Of a DNA stretch of 35,983 nt, positions 7,563 through 35,947 are shown in pieces. The DNA is from Deltaproteobacteria bacterium (GTDB lineage Bacteria; Myxococcota_A; Polyangia; Polyangiales; JADJMO01). The stretch covers positions 1 through 35,983 of the forward strand of contig JALHOE010000081.1 in NCBI GenBank assembly GCA_022843175.1, written 5' to 3'. The position numbers and the translations under genes were made by a program. Each line of letters opens with the position of its first letter. The stretch's first letter is position 1. The notes beneath the pieces were generated by a model, which was not told the origin of the DNA, searched no databases, and worked only from the letters and a program-made list of their open reading frames with translations.

Positions 7563-7686
7563 AGGCGCGCGCGTAAGCGAGCGCCTACCGGTGCGAATTT
7601 CCGAGGCGCTCGCTGACGCGCGCGCCTATGGATCGTGCCGATCCATAGGCGCTCGCTGACGCGCGCGCCTATGGATCGGCACGATC
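7563..7686. repeat. GCGTNAGC stem-loop cluster, three copies, between convergent genes
   Basis: Three 24-base stem-loops occupy 7563-7586 (loop GTAA), 7604-7627 and 7647-7670 (loop TGAC). The shared design is outer arms AGGCGC/GCGCCT, one mismatch, an inner CGC/GCG stem and a four-base loop. The third copy lies inside a longer inverted repeat whose arms GATCGTGCCGATCCAT and its complement extend the palindrome to 7631-7686. The genes on both sides end here (7554 on plus, 7747 on minus), so a bidirectional terminator or insulator role is likely. The interval 7555-7746 contains no supported gene. Confidence 0.85.
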
Positions 7687-7746
7687 GACGGCGGCGAAAG
7701 GGCAGCGCCCGCGTCGATCATCGAAAGTGGAAAGTGCTCTGGAGCT

Positions 7747-8673
7747 TCACGGGCAGGCGACGTTGTTCGGCTTCGTGGGCGTGCCGTAGAGCGCCTGGGT
7801 GCCGGCGTCGCCGGTGTACGAGCCGTACGACGTGGTGGTGACCGGGACCTCTTTCCACGCGGTGCCGAGCGTGCCGCCGGCCATCAGTCGCGCGGAAGCC
7901 GGACACGCCGCGGTCGGCGCGGGGTAGGCCCAGGACTGACCGATGCTGTACATCTTCGAGGGGATGACCGCCGTCTCGGAGGCGCTCGCGCAGCCGGGGG
8001 CGAAGATGCGCACCTCGGAGGAGGAGCTGTTGACGAGGTAGTCGTTCTTGGCGAACTCGAACACCGCGCCGAGCGTGATCGCCGTCACATCGGCGCTGAA
8101 CACCGCTTTGTCGCCGACGATCACGACCGCGGCGCCCGCCGCGACCGTGGTGCCCGCGGGGAACGTCAGCGAGGCCTTCTCGGTGCCGCTGAAGATCTTC
8201 ACCGTCACGCCGCTCACGTCGAGCAGCGACGTGCCGTAGTTGGTCAGCTCGATCCACTCGCGCTTGTCGCCGCTGCCGAAGGTGCCGCGCACCTGGAACT
8301 CCGAGAGGCCGAAGTCGGCGAGGACGCACGCGCCGCCATCGGTCGCGTCGGCGCTGGTGTCCATCGCGCTGTCGACCGTCATCGTCTCAGTCGCGACGCT
8401 GTCGGCGGAGGCGGTGTCGGCTGCCCCGCTGTCCGCCGTCGCGGTGTCCGGCGCGGAGGTGTCCTCGACCGGCTTGGCGGTGTCGGGCACCGCGGTGTCA
8501 ACGGCGCCGGTGTCGACGATCACGCCCGTGTCGCGCTTGCCGCCGCTGTAGCCGTCGAGGTCGTTGAGCACGGTGCACGCCGTGGCCGGAGCCACGAGCG
8601 CGACGAGCGTCAACCAGCGAAACTGCACCACTCGTTTTGTCGCACAGCGGGCCGGCACGTCAAGCGCGGTCAT
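7747..8673 (-). CDS. Lamin-tail-domain surface lipoprotein with DT-rich tether
   Basis: 308 residues from ATG 8673, whose ATGA overlaps the stop of the upstream deacetylase gene. A GTG at 8631 or 8628 would give a more usual signal peptide (MVQFRWLTLVALVAPATAC) and has TTGACG, 16 bases, GACAAA just upstream, so the start is open. Lipidation at the Cys of PATAC is probable. A tether of about 80 residues rich in Asp, Thr, Ala and Ser (repeats of DTG, DTA, DTS) leads to a lamin-tail domain: LSEFQVRGTFG, REWIELTNYGTSLLDVSGVTV, FPAGTTVAAGAAVVIV. In bacteria this immunoglobulin-like domain occurs in secreted and surface proteins as a binding module. No catalytic domain is seen. Confidence 0.82.
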   Translation of the reverse strand: MTALDVPARCATKRVVQFRWLTLVALVAPATACTVLNDLDGYSGGKRDTGVIVDTGAVDTAVPDTAKPVEDTSAPDTATADSGAADTASADSVATETMTVDSAMDTSADATDGGACVLADFGLSEFQVRGTFGSGDKREWIELTNYGTSLLDVSGVTVKIFSGTEKASLTFPAGTTVAAGAAVVIVGDKAVFSADVTAITLGAVFEFAKNDYLVNSSSSEVRIFAPGCASASETAVIPSKMYSIGQSWAYPAPTAACPASARLMAGGTLGTAWKEVPVTTTSYGSYTGDAGTQALYGTPTKPNNVACP

Positions 8674-9602
8674 GCTTCGACCCGCGTCGCGGCCTCTTCC
8701 AGCGTGACGAACGCGTAACCAGCGCTGCGCAGCCTCTCGACCGTCGCGGCAAGGGTGTCCTCCTTGGTGGCGACCGGCACTCGTAGATCGCGCTGCGAGC
8801 GGGCGAGCTCGGAGAGCCCGTCGTTCTGGTCGAGCACGTCGATCCCGTGCAGCTCGAGGTTGACCAGCGGCTCGCCGATCACGCCGCGGGTGAGCCACTT
8901 GGAGCGATCGGGGCCGGCGAGCATGAGGGTGGTGCCGATATAGGGGAGGCGCAGGCCGCGCGTGACCTGGATGGGCAGCTCGAGGAGGCCGCTGCCGCGG
9001 CGCCAGTACGGCTCGCCGATCCGATAGGGACGGGTTGGCGCGGTGAGGACCGCGGGGTTGTCGATGACCGAGCGGCTCGGGCGACCGAGGAGCGAATAGG
9101 CGGTGATCGCCGCGTCCTTGAGCGCCATGTAGCCGGGGCAGGGGAACACCGAGCTGTCGTAGCGGTAGCCGAGGCCCGGCAGGATGCGGAAGACCTCATC
9201 CGTGATCGTGTAGCCCGGCGCGCGGAAGCCGCGGGGACGGACGCCCGCGGCGCGCTCGATGGCGGTGGTGCCCTCGTCGATCTCCCTCGCGATCTCCTCG
9301 CGTGGCCGGCGGGTGAGGTCGTAGAGGTGCGATTGCGTGTGGTTGGCGAGCTCGTGGCCGTCCCTGTGGGCCTCGGTCAGGGCGCGCGCCGACTCGGTGC
9401 GTTCCAGATCCTTGCCGATCGCGAACAGGGTGAGCGGGACCTCGAGCGCCCGCGCGAGCGAGCGCAGCCGCGGGACGGCGATGTCGTACACCGCCGTCGC
9501 GCCGGTCGTGTCCTGCGAATCTGTGCCGGAACGCCCGTGAATGGCGTAGTAATTGGGGATCTCGTCGAGATCGACGCTGATGGCGCACAGGCGCGGGGGC
9601 AT
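8670..9602 (-). CDS. Polysaccharide deacetylase (NodB homology domain)
   Basis: 310 residues. The carbohydrate esterase family 4 motifs are visible in order: SVDLDE (Asp11/Asp13, the first motif), HELANHTQSH with the metal-binding pair His88 and His92, RAPGYTITDE (about 128-136), and LELHGIDVLDQNDG near the C-terminus. The enzyme should remove N-acetyl groups from peptidoglycan, chitin or a capsule sugar with a divalent metal; the substrate is unknown. No signal peptide is seen, so it may act in the cytoplasm or leave by an unusual route. ATG 9602 was chosen over an in-frame start at 9647 because the fold begins directly after it and TAAGAA lies 8 bases upstream. The stop overlaps the lamin-tail gene. 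Confidence 0.88.
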   Translation of the reverse strand: MPPRLCAISVDLDEIPNYYAIHGRSGTDSQDTTGATAVYDIAVPRLRSLARALEVPLTLFAIGKDLERTESARALTEAHRDGHELANHTQSHLYDLTRRPREEIAREIDEGTTAIERAAGVRPRGFRAPGYTITDEVFRILPGLGYRYDSSVFPCPGYMALKDAAITAYSLLGRPSRSVIDNPAVLTAPTRPYRIGEPYWRRGSGLLELPIQVTRGLRLPYIGTTLMLAGPDRSKWLTRGVIGEPLVNLELHGIDVLDQNDGLSELARSQRDLRVPVATKEDTLAATVERLRSAGYAFVTLEEAATRVEA

Positions 9603-9664
9603 GCGCCGCCTTCTTAGCGCAAACTGGAGCGCGGGGGGCACCCGCAACGTTCGGAGGAATTCTT

Positions 9665-11149
9665 ATGCGTCACGCTTTTGTCGCTGCGTTGTTGTTGATC
9701 GGGTGTGGGAGCTCCGAGGATCCTCCGGCGTCGCAGGGCGACACCGGAGTCGCGGACACCGGCGATGTCGGCGGCGACACGTTCGTCCCCGATCCGGCGC
9801 TCGCGGTGCCGTGCACAGACACCGAGGCCGCGGTCTTCGGCGATCCGGGAGCGCTGCCCGCCGAGAAGGGCGCGATCATCAAGTGCTTCCAGGGCCGCAA
9901 GATCAGCAAGGAAGACCTGCAGGCGCAGGCCAACAAGAACGGCTACACGGGCAAGCCGTTCACCAGCGGCGCGAAGATCTTCAAGATCACCTACCGCACC
10001 GAGCGCGGCGACACCGCGAACACACCGGGCTACTCGAGCGCGATCGTCTACCTGCCCGACGCGCCGCGCGCGGCGAAGTCTCCGTTGATGCTCGTGGCGC
10101 ACGGCAGCCGTGGGCAGATGGGCAAGTGCGCGCCCGCCGCCGAGACGCCCGAGGGCGAGTACGTGCGCAGCGACTTCGAGAGCATGACGTTGCCGCTGGT
10201 CGGCGCCGGCCTCCCGGTGATCGCGCCGGACAACGCGGGCTACGCGAACTACGGAGCGCCGGGCAACCCGCCGCCGGCCTACGCGGCCGCGGTCGACGTC
10301 GGCAAGAGCATGCTCGACGGCACGCGCGCGTTCAAGAAGCTCGCGCCGTCGGTCATCGACGACAACGTCGTGGTGATCGGCCACTCGCAGGGCGGCCACA
10401 CCGCGCTCGCGACGCTCGCCGTGTCGGAGACCTACGGCCTCGCCGGCAAGATCTCGGCGGCGGTCACCTTCGCTCCGCTCTGGCTCCCGCAGCGTAGCTG
10501 GGGCGCGCTCCTGCTCTTGCCGAGCATGTTCAACTTCACCGACTACCGCGCGGCCAACGCGGTGTCGATTTGGTACCACTACACGCACGGCGAGCTGCTC
10601 GACGGCCAGGGCAAGGGCGGAGACGTCTTCAAGCCGGAGAAGCGCGCGCAGATCAAGCAGTTCGTCGACACCATGTGCTGGGCCGAGACGTACCCGCTGC
10701 TCGACGCGATGGGTAAGGACCCGAGCGACATCTTCGAGACGAACTTCGCCGACGCGATCGGCGGTCCGTCCGGCGCCGGCTCGGCTTGCCCCACCGACGA
10801 GCCGAAGAAGTCGCTCTGCGAGAAGTGGATGAAGCGGTATCTCGACGATCGCCCCCACCTCACCGGCAACGCAGCGAAGATCCCGATCCTGTTCCTCTAC
10901 GGCAACAAGGACACGACCATCCCGCCCGAGCGCGTCAACTGCGCGCGCGATCGGCTCAAGACCGACATGGCCGCCGTCACCTGGTGCGTCGAACCCGAGA
11001 CCGATCACTCCGGCATCGTGAAGCTCCGTCAGAGCTACGCGATCGACTGGCTGCTCTCCAAGACCGCCGGCACGCCTGCGCCTGCGCCGTGTGCGAAGGG
11101 GGAGATGGACATCCCCGGCACCTGCAACACCGTGCCGCCCAACGACTGA
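9665..11149 (+). CDS. Lipase-like alpha/beta-hydrolase lipoprotein
   Basis: 494 residues. The signal peptide ends in a lipobox LLIGC (Cys14), then a DTG-rich tether (SQGDTGVADTGDVGGDT). The hydrolase has an LMLVAHGSRG oxyanion-hole strand (141-150), nucleophile elbow GHSQGG (Ser241), FLYGNKDTTIPP with Asp416 and ETDHSG with His448, forming a complete triad. The layout resembles secreted lipases/esterases of the LIP family. Several Cys pairs in the lid region suggest disulfides and an extracytoplasmic location. A clear GGAGGA ribosome site (9653-9658) sits 6 bases before the ATG. The gene is divergent from the deacetylase, with a 62-base gap. Confidence 0.88.
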   Translation: MRHAFVAALLLIGCGSSEDPPASQGDTGVADTGDVGGDTFVPDPALAVPCTDTEAAVFGDPGALPAEKGAIIKCFQGRKISKEDLQAQANKNGYTGKPFTSGAKIFKITYRTERGDTANTPGYSSAIVYLPDAPRAAKSPLMLVAHGSRGQMGKCAPAAETPEGEYVRSDFESMTLPLVGAGLPVIAPDNAGYANYGAPGNPPPAYAAAVDVGKSMLDGTRAFKKLAPSVIDDNVVVIGHSQGGHTALATLAVSETYGLAGKISAAVTFAPLWLPQRSWGALLLLPSMFNFTDYRAANAVSIWYHYTHGELLDGQGKGGDVFKPEKRAQIKQFVDTMCWAETYPLLDAMGKDPSDIFETNFADAIGGPSGAGSACPTDEPKKSLCEKWMKRYLDDRPHLTGNAAKIPILFLYGNKDTTIPPERVNCARDRLKTDMAAVTWCVEPETDHSGIVKLRQSYAIDWLLSKTAGTPAPAPCAKGEMDIPGTCNTVPPND

Positions 11150-11209
11150 CCCGCGTTCTGGGTGATGGAGCCGGGGGGCTGCCGCCAAGCATGGTTTGCG
11201 GCCCCCCAC

Positions 11210-11233
11210 GTCCGGGGCGGACCGTTCTTTTCT
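11210..11233 (+). terminator. Intrinsic terminator-like hairpin with T-tract between the lipase and cytochrome genes
   Basis: The stem GTCCG/CGGAC (11210-11214 with 11218-11222) has a GGG loop and is followed by CG and TTCTTTTCT (11225-11233). A GC-rich foldback (11173-11206, arms of six G and six C) precedes it. The gap 11150-11264 also holds a hairpin CCGTT..AACGG (11222-11249) and an AT-rich stretch with TAAAAA (11250-11255) 9 bases before the next ATG. Confidence 0.55.
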
Positions 11234-11264
11234 CTGAGTGAAAAAACGGTAAAAAGGTTAAACC

Positions 11265-13139
11265 ATGCGCGCGCGCCTCCCGCTGCTCGGTCTTGCGCTC
11301 CTCGTCTCGTGCAACGCGCAGTTCGGCGAACGCAGCGACAACGCTGTGCCGAACGATTGGACGCCGGGCAGCACCGATGCCTCGGCTCCCCCGGGGTTCG
11401 ACGTCGGGCCCGAGCAGGACTTCGACACGTCGCCGCCGCCGCCGCCGACGGCGAAGCCGAACAAGCACGCGCCGGAGTTCGGCGAGACCACGAGCGCCCC
11501 CGTGCCGCCGCCGGCGATCTCCGGCGGCACGCTCGCGTTCTCGCGCGATGGGCTGCTGGCGATCGCGTCCGATCCCGATCGCGATCTCATCCACGTCGCC
11601 GACCTCACCAAGCTCGAGCGCGTCTCGCTCGCGCTCAACGCGAACGACGAGCCCGGACGCGTGGTGGTCGACAACGGAAACCTCGCGCACGTGGTGCTCC
11701 GTCGCGGCGGCGCCGTCGTGACGATCGACCTGGCCAGCCGCACGCAGGTCTCGCGGCGCGCGGTCTGCCCGGCTCCGCGCGGCATCGCGTTCGACGACAG
11801 CAAGGGCTTGCTCCACGTCGCGTGCGCGGGCGGCGAGCTCGTCACGTTGCCGGCGCTCGGCCCGGCCACGCGCACGGTCCGGCTCGAGCGCGATCTGCGC
11901 GACGTGATCGTGCGCGGCTCCAAGCTGTTCGTCAGCACCTTCCGCAGCGCGCGCCTGCTCGAGATCGGCGCCGACGGCGCCGTCGTCAACCGCCGCGGCC
12001 TCGACCGGTCGTTCTCCTTCAAGCAGGAGGTGCAGGCGCACGTCGCCTGGCGCACGGTGCCCGATCCGCTCGGCGGCGTGCTGATGATGCACCAGCGCTC
12101 GGTGCTCACGCCGATCAGCACCGGCAGCGGCGGGTACGGCGCGGGCGGCCCGTGCGACTCGGGCATCGTGCAGAGCACGGTCACACCCTACGACGACGCC
12201 AACACCCCGCCGCAGCCCCGCTTCGCGATCCCGCACTCGGTGCTGCCGGTCGACCTCGCGGTCTCGGCCGACGGCAAGCTGCTCGCGGTCGTCGCGGCCG
12301 GCAACGCCAAGAACAAGCTCCTCCCGAAGGTGCAGATCTACGCCCGCGACGCCGTGTTGATGCCGCCCGAGGCCTGCAGCCCGCCCACCGAGCTCGTCAC
12401 CGTCGAGGGCGAGCCGATCGCCGCGGCGTTCCAGCCGAAGACCGGGATGCTGGTCGTCCAGTCGCGCGAGCCGTCGATGCTGATGATCGGCGCCGTGAAG
12501 CTCCCGCTGAGCGCCCTCAGCCGCGCCGACACGGGACACGCCGTGTTCCACGCCAACTCCGGCGTCGGCGTCGCGTGCGCGTCGTGTCACCCCGAGGGGG
12601 GCGACGACGGCCACGTGTGGAACTTCACCGGCATCGGCCCGCGCCGCACGCAGACCTTCCGTGGCGGGCTGCTCGGCACCGAGCCGCTCCACTGGGACGG
12701 CGACATGAAGGACATGCCGACGCTCGTCGACAAGGTCTTCGTCGGCCGCATGTCGGGGCTCCCGCTCGACGCGGCCAAGGTCGCCGCGCTCGCGAACTGG
12801 ATGAACGCGGTGCCGAACATTCCGAGCGTTCCGGCAGACGCGGCGGCAGCGGCGCGCGGCGAGGCGCTGTTCAAGGACAGCACCGTCGCCTGCTCGAGCT
12901 GCCACTTCGGCAAGGCGCTCACCAACAACGCGTCCGTGAACGTGGGCACCGGCAAGGCGTTCCAGGTGCCCTCGCTCCGCGGCATCGCCTGGCGCGCGCC
13001 CTTCATGCACGACGGCTGTGCTCCCACGCTCGCCGACCGCTTCGCCCTCGCCTGCGGCGGGGCCGACAACCACGGCAAGACCTCGCACCTGAGCGCGGCG
13101 CAGCTCAAAGACCTCATCGCCTACCTCGAGACGCTGTGA
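11265..13139 (+). CDS. Beta-propeller di-heme cytochrome c lipoprotein
   Basis: 624 residues. A lipobox LLVSC (Cys16) and a Pro-rich tether are followed by a YVTN-like beta-propeller (about 85-410; repeats such as GTLAFSRDGLLAIASDPDRDLIHVAD). A C-terminal region carries two c-type heme sites: C438-A-S-C-H442 and C543-S-S-C-H547. MHDG (Met581) in an RAPFMHDG context is typical of the axial-ligand region of bacterial di-heme peroxidase relatives. Heme attachment and the lipobox place it outside the cytoplasm. It may be a peroxidase-like enzyme or an electron-transfer protein; which one is not decided by sequence. There is no strong ribosome site, and the AT-rich leader could fold over the start codon. 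Confidence 0.85.
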   Translation: MRARLPLLGLALLVSCNAQFGERSDNAVPNDWTPGSTDASAPPGFDVGPEQDFDTSPPPPPTAKPNKHAPEFGETTSAPVPPPAISGGTLAFSRDGLLAIASDPDRDLIHVADLTKLERVSLALNANDEPGRVVVDNGNLAHVVLRRGGAVVTIDLASRTQVSRRAVCPAPRGIAFDDSKGLLHVACAGGELVTLPALGPATRTVRLERDLRDVIVRGSKLFVSTFRSARLLEIGADGAVVNRRGLDRSFSFKQEVQAHVAWRTVPDPLGGVLMMHQRSVLTPISTGSGGYGAGGPCDSGIVQSTVTPYDDANTPPQPRFAIPHSVLPVDLAVSADGKLLAVVAAGNAKNKLLPKVQIYARDAVLMPPEACSPPTELVTVEGEPIAAAFQPKTGMLVVQSREPSMLMIGAVKLPLSALSRADTGHAVFHANSGVGVACASCHPEGGDDGHVWNFTGIGPRRTQTFRGGLLGTEPLHWDGDMKDMPTLVDKVFVGRMSGLPLDAAKVAALANWMNAVPNIPSVPADAAAAARGEALFKDSTVACSSCHFGKALTNNASVNVGTGKAFQVPSLRGIAWRAPFMHDGCAPTLADRFALACGGADNHGKTSHLSAAQLKDLIAYLETL

Positions 13140-13228
13140 CCCGCGCCCCGCGCGACCGTCGATCGGAGCGCCGAGAGGGCCACCGCTGACCTCGTTTTCG
13201 CGTGTTCGGCTTGACCGGGGGGGGAGCT

Positions 13229-24128: not shown

Positions 24129-24137
24129 TCGTCGAGT

Positions 24138-24225
24138 AGCCGCTCGCTGACGCGCGCGGCTATTGGGCAACCCGCTCGCTGACGCGCGCGGCTATTGGGC
24201 AACCCGCTCGCTGACGCGCGCGGCT
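24138..24225. repeat. GCGTNAGC stem-loop array, three tandem copies of 32 bp
   Basis: Stem-loops at 24138-24161, 24170-24193 and 24202-24225 repeat with an exact 32-bp period. The loop is TGAC and the inner stem CGC/GCG matches the other arrays. The outer arms are AGCCGC/GCGGCT in copy one, so a G-C pair of the AGGCGC arms is replaced by C-G with pairing kept. The array sits between the convergent Fe-S carrier (ends 24128) and hypothetical gene (ends 24229). Confidence 0.9.
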
Positions 24226-24228
24226 CTG

Positions 24229-25239
24229 CTAGTCGCCGCGTAGGCGGGCGAGGGCGCCGAGGTGCCAGTTGCGGGCGCGGGCGTCGTGCAGGTGCGTCGC
24301 CGCGTAGGCGCCGAGGTTCTCGGCGGCGAGGTCGTAGCGACCGAGTCGGTAGAGGAGCGCGCCGCGCCCGAGCTGCATCGGGTAGTCGCCGAGATAGGGC
24401 CGCGTGCGCCCCGATGGGTCGGCGAAGCGGTCTATCGCGTCGAGGCGCTCGAGGTAGAGGAGCCGCCGGCGATCGATCGCGCGCTCGGCGGTGCCCGCTT
24501 GCAGCGCGTCTTCTTCGCGGACGACCGGGTGCACGACGAGGTATGTGAGGAGCGCGCGCAGCTCGGCGACCTCGAGCGGCAGCGACGTGAGCGCGTAGCA
24601 GCTCGGCGCTGGAGCGTGCTCGCAGTCCTCGAGGGCGTAGACGATGCCCGTCCAGTGCAGCTTGTAGCGCGCGCGGAGGATCGCCTCGGGCGCCTCGAGG
24701 CTGCCGTCGGCGCCGAGCCATCCGTTGCGGGTGAGCACGTCGAGCAGGCCGCCGCCGAGTCGCCTGAGCTCGTCGCTCACCGTTCGGGTGCGGACCCGCC
24801 GGTGGAGCTCGTCGATGAAGAGGTCGGCGTGATAGGCGCGGAGCTCGCGCATCGGCGCCTCGAGCGCCTTCTCGCTGCCGAGCGTGTTGCGCGCGAGGCC
24901 GAGCGCGGTGCGGATCTCGTGAGCGAGCGCTTCGCGCTTCGGATTCTTTGGATCGAGGCCGCTCGACGCTGCGGCGTTCCAATCGAGGTACGCCGAGCCG
25001 ACGGCGCGGACCACCGCGGGCAGCGGCTGTTTGTCAATGCGCATCCTCGTGGCCCGATCGCTCTCGGCGATCTTCGCGAGCGGCGCCGGATCGAGCTGCG
25101 GCAGCGGCGCGTCGAGCGGCTCGACGGGGTGGTCGAGCACGATGATCGCGCTGCAAATCCCGAGGAGCACGCCGACGGCTGCTCCGGGGAGCAGCGTGCG
25201 CAGCTCGCGTCGCAGCCCCGTCGTGACAACGAACCCCAC
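24229..25239 (-). CDS. Hypothetical membrane-anchored protein
   Basis: 336 residues from GTG 25239; not recognised. The N-terminus (about residues 15-35, LLPGAAVGVLLGICSAIIVL) is one hydrophobic anchor, and the remainder looks soluble, mostly helical and probably periplasmic. The C-terminus has a TPR-like segment (GALLYRLGRYDLAAENLGAYAATHLHDARARNWHLGALARL). The single CEHAPAPSC pair could form a disulfide. CATACT (minus 25251-25246) lies 6 bases before GTG, pointing to a leaderless start; an upstream ORF extension overlaps the PilZ gene and is rejected. The gene is divergent from PilZ, with only 24 bases between the start codons. Confidence 0.65.
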   Translation of the reverse strand: MGFVVTTGLRRELRTLLPGAAVGVLLGICSAIIVLDHPVEPLDAPLPQLDPAPLAKIAESDRATRMRIDKQPLPAVVRAVGSAYLDWNAAASSGLDPKNPKREALAHEIRTALGLARNTLGSEKALEAPMRELRAYHADLFIDELHRRVRTRTVSDELRRLGGGLLDVLTRNGWLGADGSLEAPEAILRARYKLHWTGIVYALEDCEHAPAPSCYALTSLPLEVAELRALLTYLVVHPVVREEDALQAGTAERAIDRRRLLYLERLDAIDRFADPSGRTRPYLGDYPMQLGRGALLYRLGRYDLAAENLGAYAATHLHDARARNWHLGALARLRGD

Positions 25240-27603: not shown

Positions 27604-30600
27604 ATGTCGTTCAGCGCTTGGATTCGCGCGGCGGTGATCGGGAGCGTGCTCGTGTCGGTCGCGGTGGCGCCCGGCTGCGCAGTCGACGAGGCGCCCGGTG
27701 GCGTGAAGAAGGCGACCCGCACGGGCGGCCCGCGGGTGGTGTTCGACCTCGGACACCGACCGCTGCCCGAGATCCCGCTCCCCAACGACATCGCGACCTG
27801 GCCCGACCCCACGTCGCGCACCGGCCGTCGCATCAACGCGAGCCTCGTCGCGCCGACGACGATCGAGCGGAACGCGCGCAACCAGTTCTCGCGGCTCGAG
27901 GGCTGGGGCACGTTCAGCCCGATCTCGATCCCGTTCACCAAGCCGCTCGACGCCGAGGACATCAAGGCGCGCCACGCCGCAGACGACTTCAAGTTCGACG
28001 ACGACGTCATCTACGTCGTCAACCTCAAGACCGGCGTCCCCATCCCGCTCGACGTCGGCGGCGGGAACTACCCGCTCACGCTGCGCGAGCTCCAGCGCTA
28101 CTGGCCCAACGACCCGCGCAAGGGCGAGGCCAACCTCCTCTTCGAGACCGTCGAGGAGGACAAGAACGGCAACGGCATCCTCGACGACGGCGAGGACACC
28201 GACTTCGACGGCGTGCTCGACCACCCCAACTTCCCCGGACGTGCGCGTCCGCAGAACGGCGTCGACGGGCTGTACACCTTCTACGACGCCGAGACCCGCG
28301 CGTTCATCGTGCGCCCGATGCTCCCGCTCGACGAGATGACCGAGTACGCGGTCATCGTCACCGACCGCCTGCACGGTCTCGAGAAGGACCAGAACGGCCA
28401 GATGAAGGCCGTCGAGTCGCCGTTCGAGTACATCCACCATCCGGCGCAGCGCGCCGCGGTGGCGCGCGCCGCGGAGTGGATGAGCAAGAAGCCCGAGTAC
28501 TACGGCTTCCAGGGCAACGTCCTCGATCACGTGCAGTTCGCGTTCACCTTCACGACGCAGCCGACGGTGAGCGACATGTTCGCGCTCCGCGACGGCGCGT
28601 ACGGCAAGGGCAAGTTCGGCTGGATCGGCAACGACTTCAAGCCGGAGATGAAGCTGATCAAGGCGGTCGGCATGGTCGGCTCGGCGGACTCCGATCCGGC
28701 CGGCTGGGAGTCGAAGACCGAGGCGTGCAGCGAACAGGGCGGAAAGACCCGCAACGTCGCGAAGCTCACCCCCGCGCTCAAGAGCACGCTCAAGGACCTC
28801 GCCTCGCAGGTGTTCGGTCTCGACGGCCCCGCGGCCAACCGCCTCGTGCAGGGCTACGACAACGTCGCCTACCTCGCCGCGGGCACGGTCGAGGTGCCCT
28901 GGCTCCTCGGCGACATCGACGACGTGTCGCCCGAGGCCACGATCAAGATGAACCACGAGACGGGCGAGATCCCGCACTCGCGCACCAAGGTGTCGTTCTT
29001 CCTGATCGTCCCGAAGACCACCGAGAAGTTCAAGCCGCCGTTCCCGGTCGCGTTCTACGGTCATGGCTACACCGGCGCGATGGCCGAGGGGCTCGGGTTC
29101 GCCGCGGAGCTCGCGCGCCACGGCGTCGCCACCCTCGCGCTCAACGCGCCCGGACACGGGGTCGAGCTCGACAAGGGCCTCAAGTCGCTCGCCACCGCGT
29201 TCTTCGGCGGCGCGTGCCTGCACCCGTTCAGCGAGGCGTTCGGCAACCTCAAGGACGACGTCCCCGGCCTCGATCGCGTCCGCGATCTCAACGGCGACGG
29301 CGAGTTCAAGAACGAGTCCGGCCGCGACTACTGGACGGCGTACCTCTTCCACACCCGTGACGTCGTCCGCCAGGCGGCGCTCGAAGAGGTGATGGTCACG
29401 CGCGTGATGCGCATGTTCGACGGCAAGACCACGTACGACTTCGGCGGCGGCACGCCGCAGCTCGCCGGCGACTTCGACGGCGACGGCACGATCGACATCG
29501 GCGGACCGAACGGCAAGTACTACGCGTGGGGTGGCTCGCTCGGCGGCATCCTCTCGTCGCTCGCCGGCGCCGTCGATCCCTACATCACCGCCACGGCGCC
29601 GATGGCCGGCGGCGGCGCGCTCACCGACGTCGGCGTCCGCTCGTTCCAGGGCGGCGTCGTCGAGGCGGTCGACCTCCGCGTCATGGGCCCGCTCATCGTC
29701 AGCGTCCCGGCCGAGAGCCGCTTCGACTGCGCGAAGAACGCCGAGGGCAAGTGCAAGACCGATCCGATGACCGGTCAGAACATCATCGCCCCGAAGAACG
29801 AGCAGACGCGCACCGCGTGCGACGCCGGCCAGATGTCGATCCGCTGGGTCGCCGTCGACCTCAACGACGACAAGGAGTTCGAGATCGCCTGCGTCTCGCG
29901 CGACGACTTCGCCGACGGCAACGACGTCATCGTCGGCAACCTCACCAACGGCGAGGTCCGCTGCGCGCAGATCGGCGTCGGCCGCACCGTCGCCGGCACC
30001 CCGGTGTCCGACTCCGGTAAGCCCGAGTTCCGGGTGGCGATCCCCGCCACGGTCGGCGACCAGATCACGATCACCGCCTACAAGCCGCCGCAGGGGCGCA
30101 AGCAAGCGGTGAAGCAGTACGGCAAGTCGTGCGAGCTGCTCCCCGGCGCGCAGCTCGTAAAGACGGTCGACAAATGGGCCGGCATCGGCGTCGACTGCCA
30201 GAAGGCGGCCGGCGACAAGTGCGTGCCGTTTCAGACCCAGGAGTACCCGATCGGCTCGCGCCTCGTCGCGATCAGCGAGGGCTTCGGTCTCAAGCGGCAG
30301 ACGCCGGACTTCCGCCGGTTCATGCAGCTCGCGCAGATCGCGCTCGACCCGGCCGACCCGGTGACGTTCGCGCCGTACTACTACACGCGGCCGCGCGTCG
30401 ACGAGAACGGCAAGCCGGTCGCGCCCGCTGGCATCTACACGATCAACACCATCGGCGACATGAACGTGCCGGTGAACACGGGCATCGCGGCCGCGCGCAT
30501 CCACGGCGCGATCCCGTTCCTTCGGGCCGACAACGTCGCCGCCAAGGACTACCCGGACTACGTCGCGCCCGACAAGCTCGTCGAGCTGTTCGGCGCCACG

Positions 30601-31146
30601 CCCAACCGCGTGCTCCTCGACAACCACGTCATCGAGGGAATCCGCTGGCTCAAGCGCCACCCCGCTCCCAACGACTGCAAGCAGAACGTCATCACCACGA
30701 TTGACGGCTGCCCGAAGAGCGACGTGTACGATCCGCGCGTGTGCCAGGAGGCGCTGTTCGATCCGGACAACCTCTCCGATGGCGCGATGCCCACCAAGCC
30801 GCAGGTCCCCGCCAAGCCGCTTCGTCTCATCCGTCTGGCCAAGCCGGCCACCGCCGGCGGCGAGGCCGCGATCTGGGCGCCGCGTCTGCAGGCCGAGATG
30901 GGCGGCTGGACGCCAAACGGCGTGCTCGGCGGCATGGTGCTCGCGTTCATCGTCCCCGAGGGCATCCACGGCTTCGACCCGCCGGACCCGTGCAAGAAGT
31001 TCGACACGGGTATGTACCTGGTGAACATGGTCGGTCGCTTCTTCGGCACCAACGCGAGCGACCTCCCCACCGTCACCAACCCGACGGGGCACGTGTGCGC
31101 CGCGGTGACGGACTGGAAGGCGCCCGAGGCCTGCGTCTGGAAGTAG
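27604..31146 (+). CDS. Very large lipoprotein with alpha/beta-hydrolase domain
   Basis: 1180 residues. The lipobox VAPGC gives lipidated Cys25. A broad N-terminal region includes an EF-hand-like acidic loop (EEDKNGNGILDDGEDTDFDGVLD) that may bind calcium. A hydrolase core in the middle has FYGHGYTG (His487), APGHG, and the nucleophile elbow WGGSLGG (Ser645); another calcium-like DFDGDGTID precedes it. Many Cys residues later in the protein suggest disulfides and a surface location. GGAGG (27594-27598) is 5 bases before the ATG. It shares an operon with the beta-barrel protein, which could help its display or export; that is inferred. Confidence 0.8.
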   Translation: MSFSAWIRAAVIGSVLVSVAVAPGCAVDEAPGGVKKATRTGGPRVVFDLGHRPLPEIPLPNDIATWPDPTSRTGRRINASLVAPTTIERNARNQFSRLEGWGTFSPISIPFTKPLDAEDIKARHAADDFKFDDDVIYVVNLKTGVPIPLDVGGGNYPLTLRELQRYWPNDPRKGEANLLFETVEEDKNGNGILDDGEDTDFDGVLDHPNFPGRARPQNGVDGLYTFYDAETRAFIVRPMLPLDEMTEYAVIVTDRLHGLEKDQNGQMKAVESPFEYIHHPAQRAAVARAAEWMSKKPEYYGFQGNVLDHVQFAFTFTTQPTVSDMFALRDGAYGKGKFGWIGNDFKPEMKLIKAVGMVGSADSDPAGWESKTEACSEQGGKTRNVAKLTPALKSTLKDLASQVFGLDGPAANRLVQGYDNVAYLAAGTVEVPWLLGDIDDVSPEATIKMNHETGEIPHSRTKVSFFLIVPKTTEKFKPPFPVAFYGHGYTGAMAEGLGFAAELARHGVATLALNAPGHGVELDKGLKSLATAFFGGACLHPFSEAFGNLKDDVPGLDRVRDLNGDGEFKNESGRDYWTAYLFHTRDVVRQAALEEVMVTRVMRMFDGKTTYDFGGGTPQLAGDFDGDGTIDIGGPNGKYYAWGGSLGGILSSLAGAVDPYITATAPMAGGGALTDVGVRSFQGGVVEAVDLRVMGPLIVSVPAESRFDCAKNAEGKCKTDPMTGQNIIAPKNEQTRTACDAGQMSIRWVAVDLNDDKEFEIACVSRDDFADGNDVIVGNLTNGEVRCAQIGVGRTVAGTPVSDSGKPEFRVAIPATVGDQITITAYKPPQGRKQAVKQYGKSCELLPGAQLVKTVDKWAGIGVDCQKAAGDKCVPFQTQEYPIGSRLVAISEGFGLKRQTPDFRRFMQLAQIALDPADPVTFAPYYYTRPRVDENGKPVAPAGIYTINTIGDMNVPVNTGIAAARIHGAIPFLRADNVAAKDYPDYVAPDKLVELFGATPNRVLLDNHVIEGIRWLKRHPAPNDCKQNVITTIDGCPKSDVYDPRVCQEALFDPDNLSDGAMPTKPQVPAKPLRLIRLAKPATAGGEAAIWAPRLQAEMGGWTPNGVLGGMVLAFIVPEGIHGFDPPDPCKKFDTGMYLVNMVGRFFGTNASDLPTVTNPTGHVCAAVTDWKAPEACVWK

Positions 31147-31150
31147 CGCG

Positions 31151-31711
31151 CTACTCCTCGCAGAAGTGCTTGCCGCCGGCGCAGTAGTTGGTGGTCTGCC
31201 CGGAGCGGCAGCCACCGACGAGGCAGCGGCCGATCGCCGTCTTCGCCTTGTGCGGCACGTCGCACGCCGGCGTGGCCGGGGTGTGGCTCGGCACGTTGGG
31301 GATGCAGGCGATCTTCCACTGATACTTGGTGCGCTGGCCGATGTAGAACGCGCGCTCGAGCTCGAGCCACACCTCGGGTGCGCCCACGTCGTCCTGGAAC
31401 TCGGTGCACGTCGCGTTCCTGCAGAACCGGGCCTTGAGGCGCACCGGCTTCGTCTCGGAGTCGCTGTCGGCCTCGACGCTCACCCGGATCGTCGTCGGTC
31501 CGGTCTCGAGCACCTTCACCGCGGGGATCGGGTTGTCGCCCTGCCATTCCTGCTCGAAGGGCGTGTCGATGGTGGCGACGCGGAGGACGGCGAAGCGGTC
31601 GCCGATCGCGGCCTTCCACTCGTTCTTCGGGAGCTCGATCTCGAGCTCGAGGAACGCATTGCGCGCGCAGCTGAGCGACGCGAGCGCAGCAAGCGCGACG
31701 ACCCACCTCAC
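31151..31711 (-). CDS. Hypothetical lipoprotein of the TPR-PEGA / kinase operon
   Basis: 186 residues from GTG 31711, which overlaps the upstream stop as GTGA. A short signal peptide ends in a lipobox-like LASLSC. The mature protein has strand-rich segments (FLELEIELPKN, TTIRVSVEADSD) and eight or more Cys in the C-terminal part (FCRNATC, CLVGGC, CAGGKHFC), suggesting disulfides. No known domain is recognised. Its end is only 4 bases from the end of the convergent hydrolase gene, with no stem-loop between them. Confidence 0.72.
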   Translation of the reverse strand: MRWVVALAALASLSCARNAFLELEIELPKNEWKAAIGDRFAVLRVATIDTPFEQEWQGDNPIPAVKVLETGPTTIRVSVEADSDSETKPVRLKARFCRNATCTEFQDDVGAPEVWLELERAFYIGQRTKYQWKIACIPNVPSHTPATPACDVPHKAKTAIGRCLVGGCRSGQTTNYCAGGKHFCEE

Positions 31712-32460
31712 AGCTTCACCGTCACGCCCGACTCGGGCCCGAGCTGCTTGCTGCGATCGTAGAAGTAGGCGCCCGCCGCGCCGCCGATGACGACGACGCC
31801 GATCGCGCCCCAGAACCACGGCGACGAGAGCACGCCGCCCGACTGCTCGGGCGCCGCGGGCTTCGGCACATCGGCCGGTGCGAGCTTCACGCCGACGGTC
31901 TTCTTCTCGCCGTCGGCGAACGTGCCGTCCCACGTGAAGGGCTTCGACTTGGGGTCCTCGACGCGGATCGAGTGCTTGCCCGGATCGACCTCGAGGAGCA
32001 GCGGTCGCGCGCCGTCGTCGGCGACCTCGTGGCCGTCGACGTAGATGCGCGCCTTGCTCGGGACGCCGTCGAGCGATGCCGTCGCGACCTTGCCCTTCTC
32101 CTCGGCGAGGAGCTTCTGGGCCTGCGCTCTGATGTCCGGATCGAGCCCGGGGTGCTTGGCGAGCAGCTGGGTGAACGCGTCGCGCGACTCGACGTGACGC
32201 CCGATCGCGCGGAGCGTGGTGGCGACGTTGTAGAGCGCGGCCGGCACGCCGGAGAGCGCGTAGGACTTCTCGAAGTTGGTGAGCGCGTCCGACCAGCGGC
32301 CCTGCTCGACGGCGCGGTTGCCGGCGATGTAGAGCGCCTTGGCCTCTTGCACGGCCGCCGATGAGGGCTCGGCGATCGGCGCCTTCCAGGTGTGTGGTTC
32401 GGCGGCGGCGGTCACCGAGAGCGTGCACACGAACAGCAGGACGACCGCGCGGCGGATCAT
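31708..32460 (-). CDS. Exported TPR and PEGA-domain protein, partner of the kinase
   Basis: 250 residues with signal peptide (cleavage near TAAAEP). A TPR region (about 36-105: AKALYIAGNRAVEQGRWSDALTNFEKSYALSG, ALYNVATTLRAIGRHVESRDAFTQLLAKHP) is followed by a PEGA domain (about 122-190: ARIYVDGHEV, LLLEVDPGKHSIRVED). A transmembrane helix (about 205-228) is close to the C-terminus. The protein probably projects into the periplasm and is anchored at the C-terminus. ATG overlaps the kinase stop (ATGA) and the stop overlaps the next gene (GTGA), so the three genes are tightly coupled. A role in sensing for the kinase is inferred. Confidence 0.87.
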   Translation of the reverse strand: MIRRAVVLLFVCTLSVTAAAEPHTWKAPIAEPSSAAVQEAKALYIAGNRAVEQGRWSDALTNFEKSYALSGVPAALYNVATTLRAIGRHVESRDAFTQLLAKHPGLDPDIRAQAQKLLAEEKGKVATASLDGVPSKARIYVDGHEVADDGARPLLLEVDPGKHSIRVEDPKSKPFTWDGTFADGEKKTVGVKLAPADVPKPAAPEQSGGVLSSPWFWGAIGVVVIGGAAGAYFYDRSKQLGPESGVTVKL

Positions 32461-33941
32461 TTCTTGTCGAAGGCCTCGTCTCCGAGAATAGGGCCGGTCG
32501 GCTGCTTCGGGGGCGCTGCGGTGGTCGTCGCGGGTGGGGGTGCGGTGACCACCGGCTCGACAACCTTCGCCGTCGCCGTGGGCGCGGGCGGGTGCTTCAC
32601 CTTGAGCTTCGACGGCGTCTTGCCGTTCGGGTGCGCCGTCTCGACGACGGGGGGTGCCGCGTCGACGACGGCCGTGGCGCTCTGGCTCGCGCTCGGGACG
32701 ACGAGGGGTGCGGGCTCGCTCGTCGTCGCGGGCGCCGGGGCAGGCGTGCGCGTCGCGTAATAGATTCCACCGCCGAGGCCCGCGAGGAGCACCGCGCCGA
32801 GGACGAGCGGCGCGCGGCTTCGACGACGGAGCTCGACCTCCGACGTCGTCGTCATCGTGGCGTTGACCGTGCCGGTCTGCTCGGGGAGCACGGTGATATT
32901 GCTCGTGACGAGCTCGCGCGGCTGCGGCGGAGGAGCGACCTGCGGGGTGGGCGCGCGCGCGAGGGTGATCGCGTTGTCGTCGCCGCCGAGCGCTCGGTCC
33001 ATCAGGCCACGGACGCGGCTCAGCGTCTCGCCGCCCGCGTCGTTGACCCAGCGGCTGATGTCGCGGGCGCTCGGCGCCGGGCGGTTGGCCTCGCGGAGCG
33101 CGTGCGCCATCTCGGCGGCGGTGGCGTAGCGATCGTCGACGCGACGCTCGAGCGCGCGCGCGATCGCCGCCGACACCGCGTGGGGTACCTCTTCGTCGAT
33201 GGTGTGGAGCGGCGGGATCGGCTGCGATTTGACCCTGCTGAGGATCTCCATCGAGTCGTCGCCCGCGAACAGGCGCCGACCCATGATCGCCTCCCACGCG
33301 ACGATGCCGAGCGCGAAGATGTCCGCGCGGCGGTCGAGCGGCTTGCCCTCGGCTTGCTCGGGCGAGAAGTAGGCGAACTTCCCCTTGAGCTCGCCGACCG
33401 CGGTCGCGGTGCGGCGCATCATCGCGCGCGCGATGCCGAAGTCGGTCACGCGCGCGCGGCCGTCGGCGCCGACGAGGATGTTGTGCGGCGAGACGTCGCG
33501 ATGAACGATGCCGAGGTGCACGCCGGTGGGGGTGCGCGCCTCGTGCGCGTCGTCGAGGCCCTGCGCGGCCTGCGCGATGAGCTCGACCGCGATCGGAATC
33601 GGGACGCGACCGTTGTTGCGACGGACGTCGCGCACCAGCGTGGACAGCGCGGAGCCGACCACCAGCTCCATGACGATGTACAGCGCGCCGTCCTCGGCGC
33701 GGCCGAGGTCGAGCGTCTGCACGACGTGCGGGCTCGACACGTGGACCGCGACGCGGGCCTCGTCGAGGAACATGTCGACGAACTGCGCGTCTTCCGCGAG
33801 GTGAGGCAACATGCGCTTCACCGCGACGAGCTTCTCGAAGCCCGCTTCGCCGCGAATGCGCGCCGCGAACACCTCGGCCATGCCGCCCGCGGCGATCTTG
33901 AAGAGGGCCTCGTAGCGGCCGAATCGCGGGAGCGGGTCCAT
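32457..33941 (-). CDS. Membrane Ser/Thr protein kinase
   Basis: 494 residues. The kinase domain begins at once: FGRYEALFKIAAGGMAEVFAAR, Lys in LVAVKRM, HRDVSPHN (with Ser in place of the usual Lys), DFGIARAM, SPEQ. A linker rich in Pro/Thr, a transmembrane helix (about 385-405) and a Thr/Pro/Ala tail follow. The HRDxSP form matches the kinase at 5243. The order kinase, PEGA protein is the same in both modules, and both have start-stop overlaps. The kinase is divergent from the Cys-rich lipoprotein at 34013. A promoter-like TTGACC, 17 bases, CAAAGT lies upstream. Confidence 0.92.
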   Translation of the reverse strand: MDPLPRFGRYEALFKIAAGGMAEVFAARIRGEAGFEKLVAVKRMLPHLAEDAQFVDMFLDEARVAVHVSSPHVVQTLDLGRAEDGALYIVMELVVGSALSTLVRDVRRNNGRVPIPIAVELIAQAAQGLDDAHEARTPTGVHLGIVHRDVSPHNILVGADGRARVTDFGIARAMMRRTATAVGELKGKFAYFSPEQAEGKPLDRRADIFALGIVAWEAIMGRRLFAGDDSMEILSRVKSQPIPPLHTIDEEVPHAVSAAIARALERRVDDRYATAAEMAHALREANRPAPSARDISRWVNDAGGETLSRVRGLMDRALGGDDNAITLARAPTPQVAPPPQPRELVTSNITVLPEQTGTVNATMTTTSEVELRRRSRAPLVLGAVLLAGLGGGIYYATRTPAPAPATTSEPAPLVVPSASQSATAVVDAAPPVVETAHPNGKTPSKLKVKHPPAPTATAKVVEPVVTAPPPATTTAAPPKQPTGPILGDEAFDKK

Positions 33942-33955
33942 GCCGTGCCTGCGGA

Positions 33956-33984
33956 ACTTTGCGGCGGCAGCTTCGCGCGGTCAA
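33956..33984 (-). promoter_or_regulatory. Promoter of the kinase/TPR-PEGA operon
   Basis: On the minus strand TTGACC (33984-33979) and CAAAGT (33961-33956) are 17 bases apart; the -10 is weak. The ATG (33941) is 14 bases downstream. The 71-base divergent gap also holds TAGGCT for the plus gene. Confidence 0.45.
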
Positions 33985-33995
33985 TGAAACGGGGC

Positions 33996-34001
33996 TAGGC
34001 T
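33996..34001 (+). promoter_or_regulatory. -10-like TAGGCT of the Cys-rich lipoprotein gene
   Basis: TAGGCT ends 11 bases before ATG 34013, like the other short-leader starts in this window. No convincing -35 is seen at 17 bases. Confidence 0.35.
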
Positions 34002-34012
34002 GAGGGCGCGGA

Positions 34013-35854
34013 ATGACTCGTTGGTCGCGCTTTCTTTTTGCCGGTTTGTCGGTGTTCGGGGCGATCGCCTCATGCAAGAGCTCCGGCGTATCGCTGAGCG
34101 TCGACCTCCGCACCGACTACGTGCCGGGCCGTGAAATCGGCAGCGTCGTCACCGAGGTCGTGCCCGACGGCTCCGGCGCACTCAACGCCGAGCACCCGAT
34201 CTCGGCAGCCGAGAAGCAGTTCGTCGAGGGGGCGCGGATCGCCGACTTCGGCGACGTTCCCAAGGGGCAGGTCTCGGTGCGGGTGAGGGTGCTGTCGCCC
34301 ACGGGCGAGCCCCTCGTCGAGCGCCTCGCGCGGCTGAGCATCGACGGCGACTACGCCCTGACGATGGTCATCACCCGCAACTGCGAGGGCATCGTGTGTC
34401 CCGAACCGGGCGGAGACACGGCCGCGTCCACCTGCGACCGCGGCAAGTGCGTGCGCCCGGAGTGCACCGTGGTCACCACCAAGTTCTGCGCGCCGCCGGA
34501 GTGCAGCAAGAACGACGACTGTCACACCGATGCAACCTGCGTCGACGCGCACTGCGCCGCCGGCACGTGTCTGTTCCTCCCCAACGACGGCAAGTGCAAA
34601 GCGGGCCAGACGTGCGACGTGGCGCGCGGGTGTCAGCCGCCGGACGGACCGGCGTGCACCGCGACGTCGAGCACCGAGCTCAAGTGCGACGACGGCATCG
34701 ACGACGACTGCGACGGCAAGCCGGACTGCCTCGACCCGGACTGCGAGGGCAAGGCCTGCGAAGACGGCGACAAGTGCACCGAGGGCGAGACGTGCGGCGC
34801 GCTCGCGTGCAACGGGGGCACCGCCAAGAGCTGCGACGACAGCAACCCGTGCACCACCGACGCCTGCGATCCGAAGACGGGCTGCACGTCGACCAAGAGC
34901 TCGGGCGGGGCCTGCAGCTCGGGCAACCCGTGCACCGAGAACGACACCTGCGTCGACGGCGTCTGCACGCCCGGCATGCCCAAGACCTGCGACGACAAGA
35001 ACCCGTGCACGACCGACACCTGCGATCCGACGACGGGCTGCAAGAGCGTCAACAACACCGAGCCGTGCGACGACGGCACCTTCTGCAACGGCGGCGACAC
35101 CTGCAAGGACGGCACGTGCCAGCTGCACGCGGGCAACCCGTGCGGCAAGGCGTGCGACGAGGTGATCGACCGCTGCGTCGGCTGTTTGATCGACGCCGAC
35201 TGCGGGCCGGTCACCACCACGGCGTGGAGCGCGTGCGGCGGCTTCGCCTCCACCTGCGACGAGAGCGGCACCCAGTCGCGCACCGTCACCACGCCGAAGT
35301 GCATGTCGAACACGTGCACCAACGTCGTCACCACCGAGAATCAAGCCTGCAGTCGGAGCACCACCGGCGTCACGTGCGGCTCCACCACCACCGGCGCATG
35401 GAGCGGCTGCGGCGGCTTCGCCACCGCGTGCGACACCACCGGCTCACGTAGCCGCACCATCACAACGTTCAAGTGCGCGGCCGGCGCGTGCGCGTCGAGC
35501 GCCACCACGGAGACCGGTAGCTGCACGCGCACCGTGGCCAACGGCACCGGCTGCGGCACGGGCAAATACTGCTGCAGCGGCGCCGGGTGCGTCGCCCGGA
35601 ACGCGAACGCGCACTGCAGCTCGTGCGGCATCAACTGCGGCAGCGGCTCGAGCTGCGTCGGCGTCGGCGGCGGCAACTACTCGTGCACCTGCAGCTCGAA
35701 CGCGCAGTGTCAGTCGTGGGGCTTCGGCTCCGGCGCCACGTGCTGGGCGCCGAGCGGCCAGATGGTGTGCAACTGCCAGTGCACCACCGCCAACTGCTGC
35801 GCCGGCGGCGCGGACTGCTTCAAGCCGAGCGGTATCAATTATTGCAGCTACTGA
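34013..35854 (+). CDS. Large Cys-rich surface lipoprotein with PCTTDxCDPxTGC and thrombospondin-like repeats
   Basis: 613 residues. The lipobox AIASC gives lipidated Cys21. A beta-rich domain (about 25-125) is followed by a long Cys-rich region. Within it are a DCDG-type acidic metal-binding-like motif (KCDDGIDDDCDGKPDC), two PCTTDxCDPxTGC repeats (from Pro279 and Pro331, 52 residues apart), two thrombospondin-type-1-like repeats (AWSxCGGFAxxCD, from Ala404 and Ala462, 58 residues apart), and a terminal CxxC-rich segment. Such modules usually form disulfide-bonded adhesive stalks at the cell surface. Adhesion is inferred. The gene is divergent from the kinase operon and ends before a stem-loop cluster. 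Confidence 0.85.
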   Translation: MTRWSRFLFAGLSVFGAIASCKSSGVSLSVDLRTDYVPGREIGSVVTEVVPDGSGALNAEHPISAAEKQFVEGARIADFGDVPKGQVSVRVRVLSPTGEPLVERLARLSIDGDYALTMVITRNCEGIVCPEPGGDTAASTCDRGKCVRPECTVVTTKFCAPPECSKNDDCHTDATCVDAHCAAGTCLFLPNDGKCKAGQTCDVARGCQPPDGPACTATSSTELKCDDGIDDDCDGKPDCLDPDCEGKACEDGDKCTEGETCGALACNGGTAKSCDDSNPCTTDACDPKTGCTSTKSSGGACSSGNPCTENDTCVDGVCTPGMPKTCDDKNPCTTDTCDPTTGCKSVNNTEPCDDGTFCNGGDTCKDGTCQLHAGNPCGKACDEVIDRCVGCLIDADCGPVTTTAWSACGGFASTCDESGTQSRTVTTPKCMSNTCTNVVTTENQACSRSTTGVTCGSTTTGAWSGCGGFATACDTTGSRSRTITTFKCAAGACASSATTETGSCTRTVANGTGCGTGKYCCSGAGCVARNANAHCSSCGINCGSGSSCVGVGGGNYSCTCSSNAQCQSWGFGSGATCWAPSGQMVCNCQCTTANCCAGGADCFKPSGINYCSY

Positions 35855-35871
35855 CCTCGTTCGGCGGGTTT

Positions 35872-35947
35872 AGGCGCTCGCTGACGCGCGCGCCTGTTTG
35901 ACGCGCGCCTGTTGGGGGCTGGCAGGCGCGCGCGTCAGCGAGCGCCT
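35872..35947. repeat. GCGTNAGC stem-loop cluster, two inverted copies and a fragment
   Basis: Full copies at 35872-35895 (loop TGAC) and 35924-35947 (loop GTCA) face in opposite directions, with a partial copy (35899-35910) between. Arms are AGGCGC/GCGCCT as at 7563 and 17426. The cluster begins 18 bases after the Cys-rich lipoprotein stop; the next gene lies outside the window. Bases 35948-35983 show nothing recognisable. Confidence 0.85.

What the first reader, a model, noticed from the sequence alone, without database searches (positions are those of the whole stretch)
7563..35947. A stem-loop family with core GCGTNAGC marks convergent gene ends
At least 15 full copies occur at five sites (7563-7670, 17426-17563, 21486-21620, 24138-24225, 35872-35947). 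Four sites are gaps between convergent units, and the fifth follows the last plus gene. Promoter-bearing gaps have none, and the only other convergent junction (31146/31151) has just 4 bases. All copies keep an inner CGC/GCG-type stem and a GTNA (or complement TNAC) loop. The family could be a bidirectional terminator, a transcription-collision or supercoiling insulator, or a REP-like element tolerated only at gene ends. It predicts that the next gene beyond 35983 is on the minus strand.
Basis: partly seen in the sequence, partly recalled or inferred. Interest (0 to 1): 0.75.

Follow-up and report, generated by a model that had tools for sequence, protein, structure and literature searches.

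The report
REP-like hairpin repeats at gene ends
The stem-loops are copies of a short palindromic repeat that has multiplied hundreds of times in this one bacterial genome and sits mainly just after the ends of genes, much as the REP repeats known from other bacteria do.

Summary
The window is a whole contig of an unnamed 9.75-Mb genome with 695 copies of the 16-base core against 7 of the backward control. A 20-base form occurs 577 times there and twice in the other 376 phylum genomes searched. The unit is AGGCGCgCGCGTNAGCGaGCGCCT: nine pairs, a kept G·A mismatch, compensatory changes, GTNA loop. In an 18% sample, window left out, elements lie in 34 of 305 convergent, 25 of 958 tandem and 1 of 301 divergent gaps. 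Per gene 3' end, convergent gaps (34 of 610 ends) and tandem gaps of 60 bp or more (21 of 381) are occupied equally: they mark 3' ends rather than convergence. In 15 of 93 such ends the element's own TAG is the stop codon. There is no T-tract. The same placement and TAG habit are published for GTAG REPs (PMC3733652). None of six Y1 transposase genes is flanked by the element. Heptamer arrays in a same-genus relative show a like gap bias, but 7 of its 10 such convergent gaps can also form stems, so a hairpin role is not excluded. Verdict: new REP-like family; termination not shown.

The parts
7563..7586 (+). element, GTAA loop
7604..7627 (-). element, GTCA loop on minus strand
7647..7670 (-). 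element, GTCA loop on minus strand; shares flanks with the previous copy
17426..17449 (+). element, unit 1 of a 38-bp tandem array of 4
17464..17487 (+). element, array unit 2
17502..17525 (+). element, array unit 3
17540..17563 (+). element, array unit 4 (ends in CCC)
21488..21508 (+). variant-stem copy with a bulge, GTGA loop
   Evidence: by eye; repeat D8
21549..21572 (+). variant stem GGCCGCGGGC-GTGA-GCCCGCGGTT
21599..21622 (-). variant stem GGCCGCGCGC-GTAA-GCGCGCGGTT on the minus strand, fully paired inner stem
24138..24161 (-). variant stem AGCCGC..GCGGCT, unit 1 of a 32-bp array of 3
24170..24193 (-). array unit 2
24202..24225 (-). array unit 3; its edge lies 3 bases from the stop codon of the minus gene 24229-25239
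35872..35895 (-). element, left arm of an inverted pair
35924..35947 (+). element, right arm of the inverted pair; a partial copy lies between the two

Best explanation
This is a family of REP-like repeats found in quantity in this genome only: a 24-bp imperfect palindrome with a GTNA loop and a kept G·A mismatch. Shown: about 700 core copies in the genome, local amplification (tandem arrays with identical spacers, inverted pairs), near-absence from the relatives searched, and near-absence from coding DNA and divergent (promoter) gaps. Inferred: copies spread as non-autonomous DNA, perhaps through a single-stranded hairpin recognised by a Y1/HUH nuclease acting in trans, and persist where they do least harm, directly after stop codons. 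A convergent gap has two 3' ends and no promoter, so it collects the most per gap. The 5' TAG of the GTNA strand can itself serve as a stop codon, so a copy landing at the very end of a gene is tolerated.
For: Copy number and control. Restriction: 577 against 2 in the 376 other genomes; 3 loose copies with 5 control hits in same-genus G001; GTNA or complement loops in at least 110 of 189 intergenic 4-nt-loop hairpins here, 1 GTGA in 33 in G001. Structure: pairs -3, -5 and -8 show compensatory changes, and the G·A at -4/+4 is kept in 123 of 141 copies. Gap counts and equal occupancy per 3' end; likewise in contigs of normal coding density, 29 of 170 convergent gaps (340 ends) and 15 of 177 tandem gaps of 60 bp or more. 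Own TAG as stop in 15 of 93 ends; TAG at 29 of 53 ends within 30 bases without overlap against 28-39% in element-free convergent gaps. Gaps without the element at the same gene pairs: 26 bp in G001 against 135 bp here, overlapping genes in G001 against 186 bp here, 20 bp in G003 against 100 bp at window 24129-24228. The published REP pattern is the same (PMC3733652, passages).
Against: No mobilising enzyme is tied to the family: 0 of 6 Y1 genes examined have the hairpin element on both sides; the C15 gene has a copy 213 bases off on one side, and the C139 gene has bare 8-mers without a stem at -77, +181 and +261. G001 has 28 matches to the same transposase, some of them pieces of one gene, and no element family. 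In tandem gaps the copy nearest the stop has its GTNA strand in the sense direction in 19 of 25 cases (p = 0.015), which could hint at an RNA role; over all 93 ends it is 53, p = 0.21. Convergent gaps longer than 100 bp hold 1 in 73 against 29 in 158 for 1-100 bp, unexpected for free insertion; in contigs of normal coding density alone 1/20 against 25/100, p = 0.07. Seven of ten heptamer-bearing convergent gaps of G001 also carry an inverted partner, so stem-forming repeats at convergent ends recur in the genus.
Confidence: 0.75

Rival explanations
1. Bidirectional transcription terminator or collision insulator: the hairpin stops RNA polymerase arriving from either side.
For: Placement at 3' ends and in convergent gaps; stable hairpin on both strands (RNA energies); folding energy after stops is lower at element-bearing ends only; sense bias in tandem gaps 19/25; stem-forming heptamer arrays in 7 of 10 array-bearing convergent gaps of G001.
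Against: No T-tract on either side: mean 1.9 and 2.3 T in 12 bases, 6 or more T in 2 and 5 of 141. Only about 6% of 3' ends carry one, and other sampled ends, up to 80 per class, show no comparable hairpin. Near-absent from the same-genus relative; both orthologous convergent gaps that could be lined up with G001 do without.
Confidence: 0.15
2. Protein-binding DNA site, for example for gyrase or a nucleoid protein, that relieves supercoiling between converging polymerases.
For: Kept G·A mismatch and loop; convergent placement. Gyrase targeting of E. coli REPs is mentioned in PMC3733652 (discussion passage).
Against: Equal occupancy per 3' end in tandem gaps leaves no extra signal for convergence. 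Found in quantity in one genome only.
Confidence: 0.05
3. Chance GC-rich hairpins in a 70% GC genome.
For: Bare GCGTNAGC occurs 11 times outside the five sites in the window; 6 of the 141 hairpins of the sample lie in called genes and look like chance stems.
Against: 695 against 7 backward controls; near-identical arrays.
Confidence: 0.01

Closest known systems
GTAG-tagged REPs (Di Nocera et al. 2013, PMC3733652; parts 1-2 of 8 of the text and passages read)
   Same: 20-40 bp palindrome, high copy, extragenic, mostly in convergent and unidirectional gaps, close to stop codons, TAG end often serving as the stop codon, some families species-specific; a G·A mismatch is noted in P. aeruginosa GTAG-24.
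   Different: The tag here is mostly ATAG or ACAG (41 and 31 of 141), GTAG in only 6 of 141, and its AG is mostly paired in the stem.
RAYT-flanked REPs and BIMEs (Nunvar et al. 2010, PMC2817692; passages)
   Same: Inverted pairs and arrays; a RAYT-like gene family is present in the genome.
   Different: That paper describes RAYT genes as always flanked by two inverted REPs; none of the six Y1 genes here is.
REPINs (PMC3116915; search listing only)
   Same: Dispersed short palindromes multiplied within one genome, often in inverted pairs (the pair definition is recalled).
   Different: Neighbouring copies are nearly as often same-strand as inverted (30 against 37), with variable spacing.
CGTC-tagged REPs (PMC3733652)
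   Same: Palindrome with short loop; the paper says they apparently lack a dedicated transposase.
   Different: CGTC is a terminal unpaired tag there; here CGTC, when N is C, spans the stem-loop junction.

Membership tests
REP (general sense) | short palindrome of 20-40 bp, more than 100 copies | tested here: met
   24-bp unit, 695 core copies
REP (general sense) | extragenic, near gene 3' ends | tested here: met
   131 of 141 hairpins of the sample lie in counted gaps, 6 in called genes
GTAG superfamily | unpaired GTAG at one end | tested here: not met
   GTAG in 6 of 141 copies; ATAG 41, ACAG 31, CTAG 14; the AG is mostly paired
CGTC superfamily | terminal unpaired CGTC | tested here: not met
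   no CGTC at the element edges in the consensus
RAYT-REP system | rayt gene flanked by two inverted copies of the REP | tested here: not met
   0 of 6 Y1 genes examined; the assembly is rated 95% complete, so a missing gene is possible
RAYT-REP system | RAYT protein present in the genome | tested here: inconclusive
   5 proteins match NF047646 best but below its cut-off of 80 bits
REPIN | inverted pair as the mobile unit (recalled) | tested here: inconclusive
   37 opposite and 30 same-strand neighbours; 36 of 74 clusters are single
Intrinsic terminator | hairpin followed by a T-tract | tested here: not met
Intrinsic terminator | RNA 3' ends at the hairpin | not testable with these tools
   no RNA data

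The most novel reading that the evidence does not exclude
Convergent gene ends in this genus need, or strongly favour, a stem-forming spacer, and each species fills that role with its own unrelated, fast-multiplying repeat: the GTNA palindrome here, inverted heptamer arrays in G001. On this reading the repeats are recruited, quickly replaced, bidirectional stem-loops, and the palindrome spreads without a linked RAYT gene.
Probability: 0.12. Interest if true: 0.6.

Novelty: new member of a known kind. Interest (0 to 1): 0.3.

Why it matters
It adds a large, apparently young REP-like family in a group for which my searches listed no description (two of the three lists were capped), and shows with counts that the apparent preference for convergent gaps follows from a preference for gene 3' ends. 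A same-genus relative that fills such gaps with a different repeat makes it possible to ask whether stems at convergent ends are recruited or merely tolerated. If a mobilising enzyme were found for a REP without a flanking RAYT, it would bear on a question that PMC3733652 leaves open for the CGTC REPs.

Tried and rejected
Terminator reading: not adopted, for lack of a T-tract and of any general hairpin signal at other sampled gene ends, but kept as a rival. RAYT flanking: looked for around six Y1 genes, not found. Integron attC and CRISPR readings were considered from memory and dropped, with no call. Phage or plasmid origin: no match in viral contigs for the exact 22-base pattern, none in plasmids for the 17416-17567 array. 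The excess in short over long convergent gaps is confounded by element-poor contigs. Next gene beyond 35983: the protein of the G002 neighbour has only a 35% match at 23486-24400 of contig C104, which is 29390 long, so undecided. A paper listed with 'rayt' held it only inside an author's name (PMC11705834, passage). Gene calls come from a home-made codon-statistics finder; it misses some atypical genes, and tRNAs are not in the gap types, so the window's tRNA site counts as tandem. Rows dropped: gaps over 1500 bp, and the window itself in the gap counts. Of the 141 core hairpins, 131 lie in counted gaps (80 convergent, 50 tandem, 1 divergent); the other ten are 6 in called genes with stems unlike the family, 2 in a gap over 1500 bp on C16, and 2 after the last gene of the window. 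The 1.76-Mb sample is not random: the longest contigs C1-C18 (some in part), the window, stretches of C128, C139 and C367 taken for transposase genes, and the first 20 kb of C19-C25. The G001 sample (614 kb) is not random either: some stretches were taken for transposase genes or orthologues.
Full report
Observation. The five sites and their copies are present as described. Fourteen copies pass a hairpin test and a fifteenth, near 21488, has a bulge (by eye). The eight-base core alone is not diagnostic: 11 of its 26 occurrences in the window lie outside the five sites. The window is the whole of contig C81, 35983 bases, of genome G000, 9.75 Mb in 470 contigs. The nearest named relative seen is a metagenome-assembled 'Deltaproteobacteria bacterium' whose contig has the same length, 156367, as G003:C123; records very near G000 may be left out of that search.

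Genome-wide. CGCGCGTNAGCGNGCG occurs 695 times in G000 and 7 times read backwards. GCGCGCGCGTNAGCGAGCGC occurs 577 times in G000 and twice in the other 376 genomes drawn from the phylum, once each in G030 and G272. Among the 55 relatives searched with the looser core, forward-plus-reverse counts are 23 at most, against backward controls: G048 23 against 6, G015 16 against 21, G002 15 against 6, G040 7 against 0; the same-genus G001 has 3 against 5. In 1.6 Mb of G000 at least 110 of 189 intergenic hairpins with 4-base loops have GTNA or its complement; in 356 kb of G001 one of 33 has GTGA.

Anatomy. The consensus over 130 copies is (A)(T/C)AGGCGCgCGCGTNAGCGaGCGCCT. Over 141 copies the pair at -8/+8 is G-C in 107 and C-G in 31, -3/+3 is C-G in 134 and G-C in 7, -5/+5 is C-G in 139 and G-C in 2, while -4/+4 is G·A in 123 and G-C in 16. 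So the stem is kept by compensatory change while one mismatch is kept as it is. Sub-families differ in stem but keep the loop: AGGCGCGCGC/GCGAGCGCCT in 91, AGCCGCGCGC/GCGAGCGGGT in 12, GGCCGCGCGC/GCGCGCGGTT in 7, GGCCGCGGGC/GCCCGCGGTT in 3, the rest in smaller numbers. The loop was part of the search rule, so its constancy in this set is by construction; the excess of GTNA loops among all 4-base loops is not. In the pair folded in both directions, the GTNA strand is the more stable, -12.2 against -10.8 kcal/mol as DNA. Copies form 74 clusters, 36 of them single; neighbours are 37 opposite and 30 same-strand, and several arrays repeat the spacer exactly or nearly so, a sign of local duplication.

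Placement. With genes called by a script trained on this genome, the sample without the window has elements in 34 of 305 convergent, 25 of 958 tandem and 1 of 301 divergent gaps; by element-free gap length 7.8, 30.5 and 21.7 would be expected. Counted per gene 3' end, convergent gaps (34 of 610 ends) equal tandem gaps of at least 60 bp (21 of 381). In contigs of normal coding density the figures are 29 of 340 ends and 15 of 177; in the others 5 of 270 and 6 of 204. The elements therefore follow gene 3' ends, and convergence as such adds nothing measurable. The median distance from stop codon to element is about 14 bases in both settings, the window included. In 15 of 93 ends the stop codon is the TAG at the element's edge, and TAG is over-represented at ends within 30 bases too, 29 of 53, against 28-39% TAG in element-free convergent gaps (binomial p = 0.0005 against 31%).

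Relatives at the same gene pairs. Nine element-bearing gaps on three contig pieces were compared with stretches of G001; in two of them both neighbours are adjacent there. C13:60961-61095 holds two copies; the gap in G001 is 26 bp with none. C13:66622-66807 holds four; in G001 the two genes overlap. In the others a neighbour had no match or lay elsewhere. The window gap 24129-24228 is 20 bp in G003 and 232 bp in G004, both without a copy. Gain here rather than loss there is inferred from the near-absence of the family elsewhere.

Function. There is no T-tract. Gene ends without the element, up to 80 per class, show no comparable hairpin signal in G000 or G001, so the family does not look like part of a general hairpin-terminator system. 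G001 has heptamer arrays (ACGACTG, AAGGTCG, ACTCTAG classes) in 10 of 92 convergent, 7 of 341 tandem and 1 of 91 divergent gaps (Fisher p 0.0006 and 0.009): an unrelated repeat with the same gap bias. The unit is not a hairpin, but 7 of the 10 convergent gaps, 2 of the 7 tandem and not the divergent one also hold the reverse-complement unit at least twice in a row, so stems can form there. This fits tolerance of any repeat at gene ends, and does not exclude recruitment of stems. Two further results are unexplained: the sense bias in tandem gaps, 19 of 25 (p = 0.015; 53 of 93 over all ends, p = 0.21), and the scarcity in long convergent gaps, 1 of 73 against 29 of 158, which weakens to p = 0.07 in contigs of normal coding density.

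Mobility. Six Y1-type transposase genes were examined in G000. Five match the NCBI RAYT model better than the IS200 model, below its cut-off. None has the hairpin element on both sides; the C15 gene has one shortened copy 213 bases away on one side, and the C139 gene has only bare 8-mers nearby. Several are flanked instead by another repeat, of the CCTGCCGGCGGC type (read by eye). G001 gives 28 matches to the C15 protein, some of them pieces of one gene, and has no element family. So the mobilising enzyme is unknown.

Literature. Di Nocera et al. 2013 (PMC3733652; parts 1 and 2 of 8 and passages) report that REPs lie mostly between unidirectional and convergent genes, close to 3' ends, and that GTAG REP ends often provide the TAG stop. 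Nunvar et al. 2010 (PMC2817692; passages) describe RAYT genes flanked by inverted REPs. Searches for REPs or RAYTs with myxobacterial or deltaproteobacterial terms listed no paper on such a family in this group (20 of 116 listed, 3 of 3, 15 of 34; listings only, with one passage checked).

Verdict. A confirmed observation; a new member of the REP kind, found in quantity in one genome, outside the strict GTAG and CGTC definitions; terminator or insulator function is not shown by present evidence and not excluded.

Noticed in passing
G001 stretches, e.g. L156:7658-8102 and L250:6136-6634: Heptanucleotide tandem arrays (ACGACTG, AAGGTCG, ACTCTAG classes) dispersed over many gaps of the same-genus relative, biased to convergent gaps and there often in both orientations; only 5 heptamer arrays, of other motifs, in 1.76 Mb of G000.
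   Followed up: partly
G001 whole genome: 28 matches to one RAYT-like transposase in G001, some of them pieces of one gene, against 5 in G000; what they mobilise is unknown.
   Followed up: no
L102 near 10111-10716, L182 near 4013-4609, L166 near 339-791: RAYT-like genes are flanked on one or both sides by a CCTGCCGGCGGC / GCCGCCGGCAGG repeat, possibly their own terminal repeats (by eye).
   Followed up: no
G000:C2 near 24850, C13 near 15400, C17 near 12000: A second related hairpin, AGCCGCGACC-GTNA-GGGAGCGGGTTGT, beside the main element in several clusters.
   Followed up: no
G000:C1, C3, C21, C22: Contig stretches of lower GC3 and coding density with almost no elements (1 in about 275 kb): islands, another replicon or contamination.
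   Followed up: no
20940-21038: Small bacterial SRP RNA on the minus strand near two tRNA-Ser genes (21216-21305, 21355-21440).
   Followed up: no
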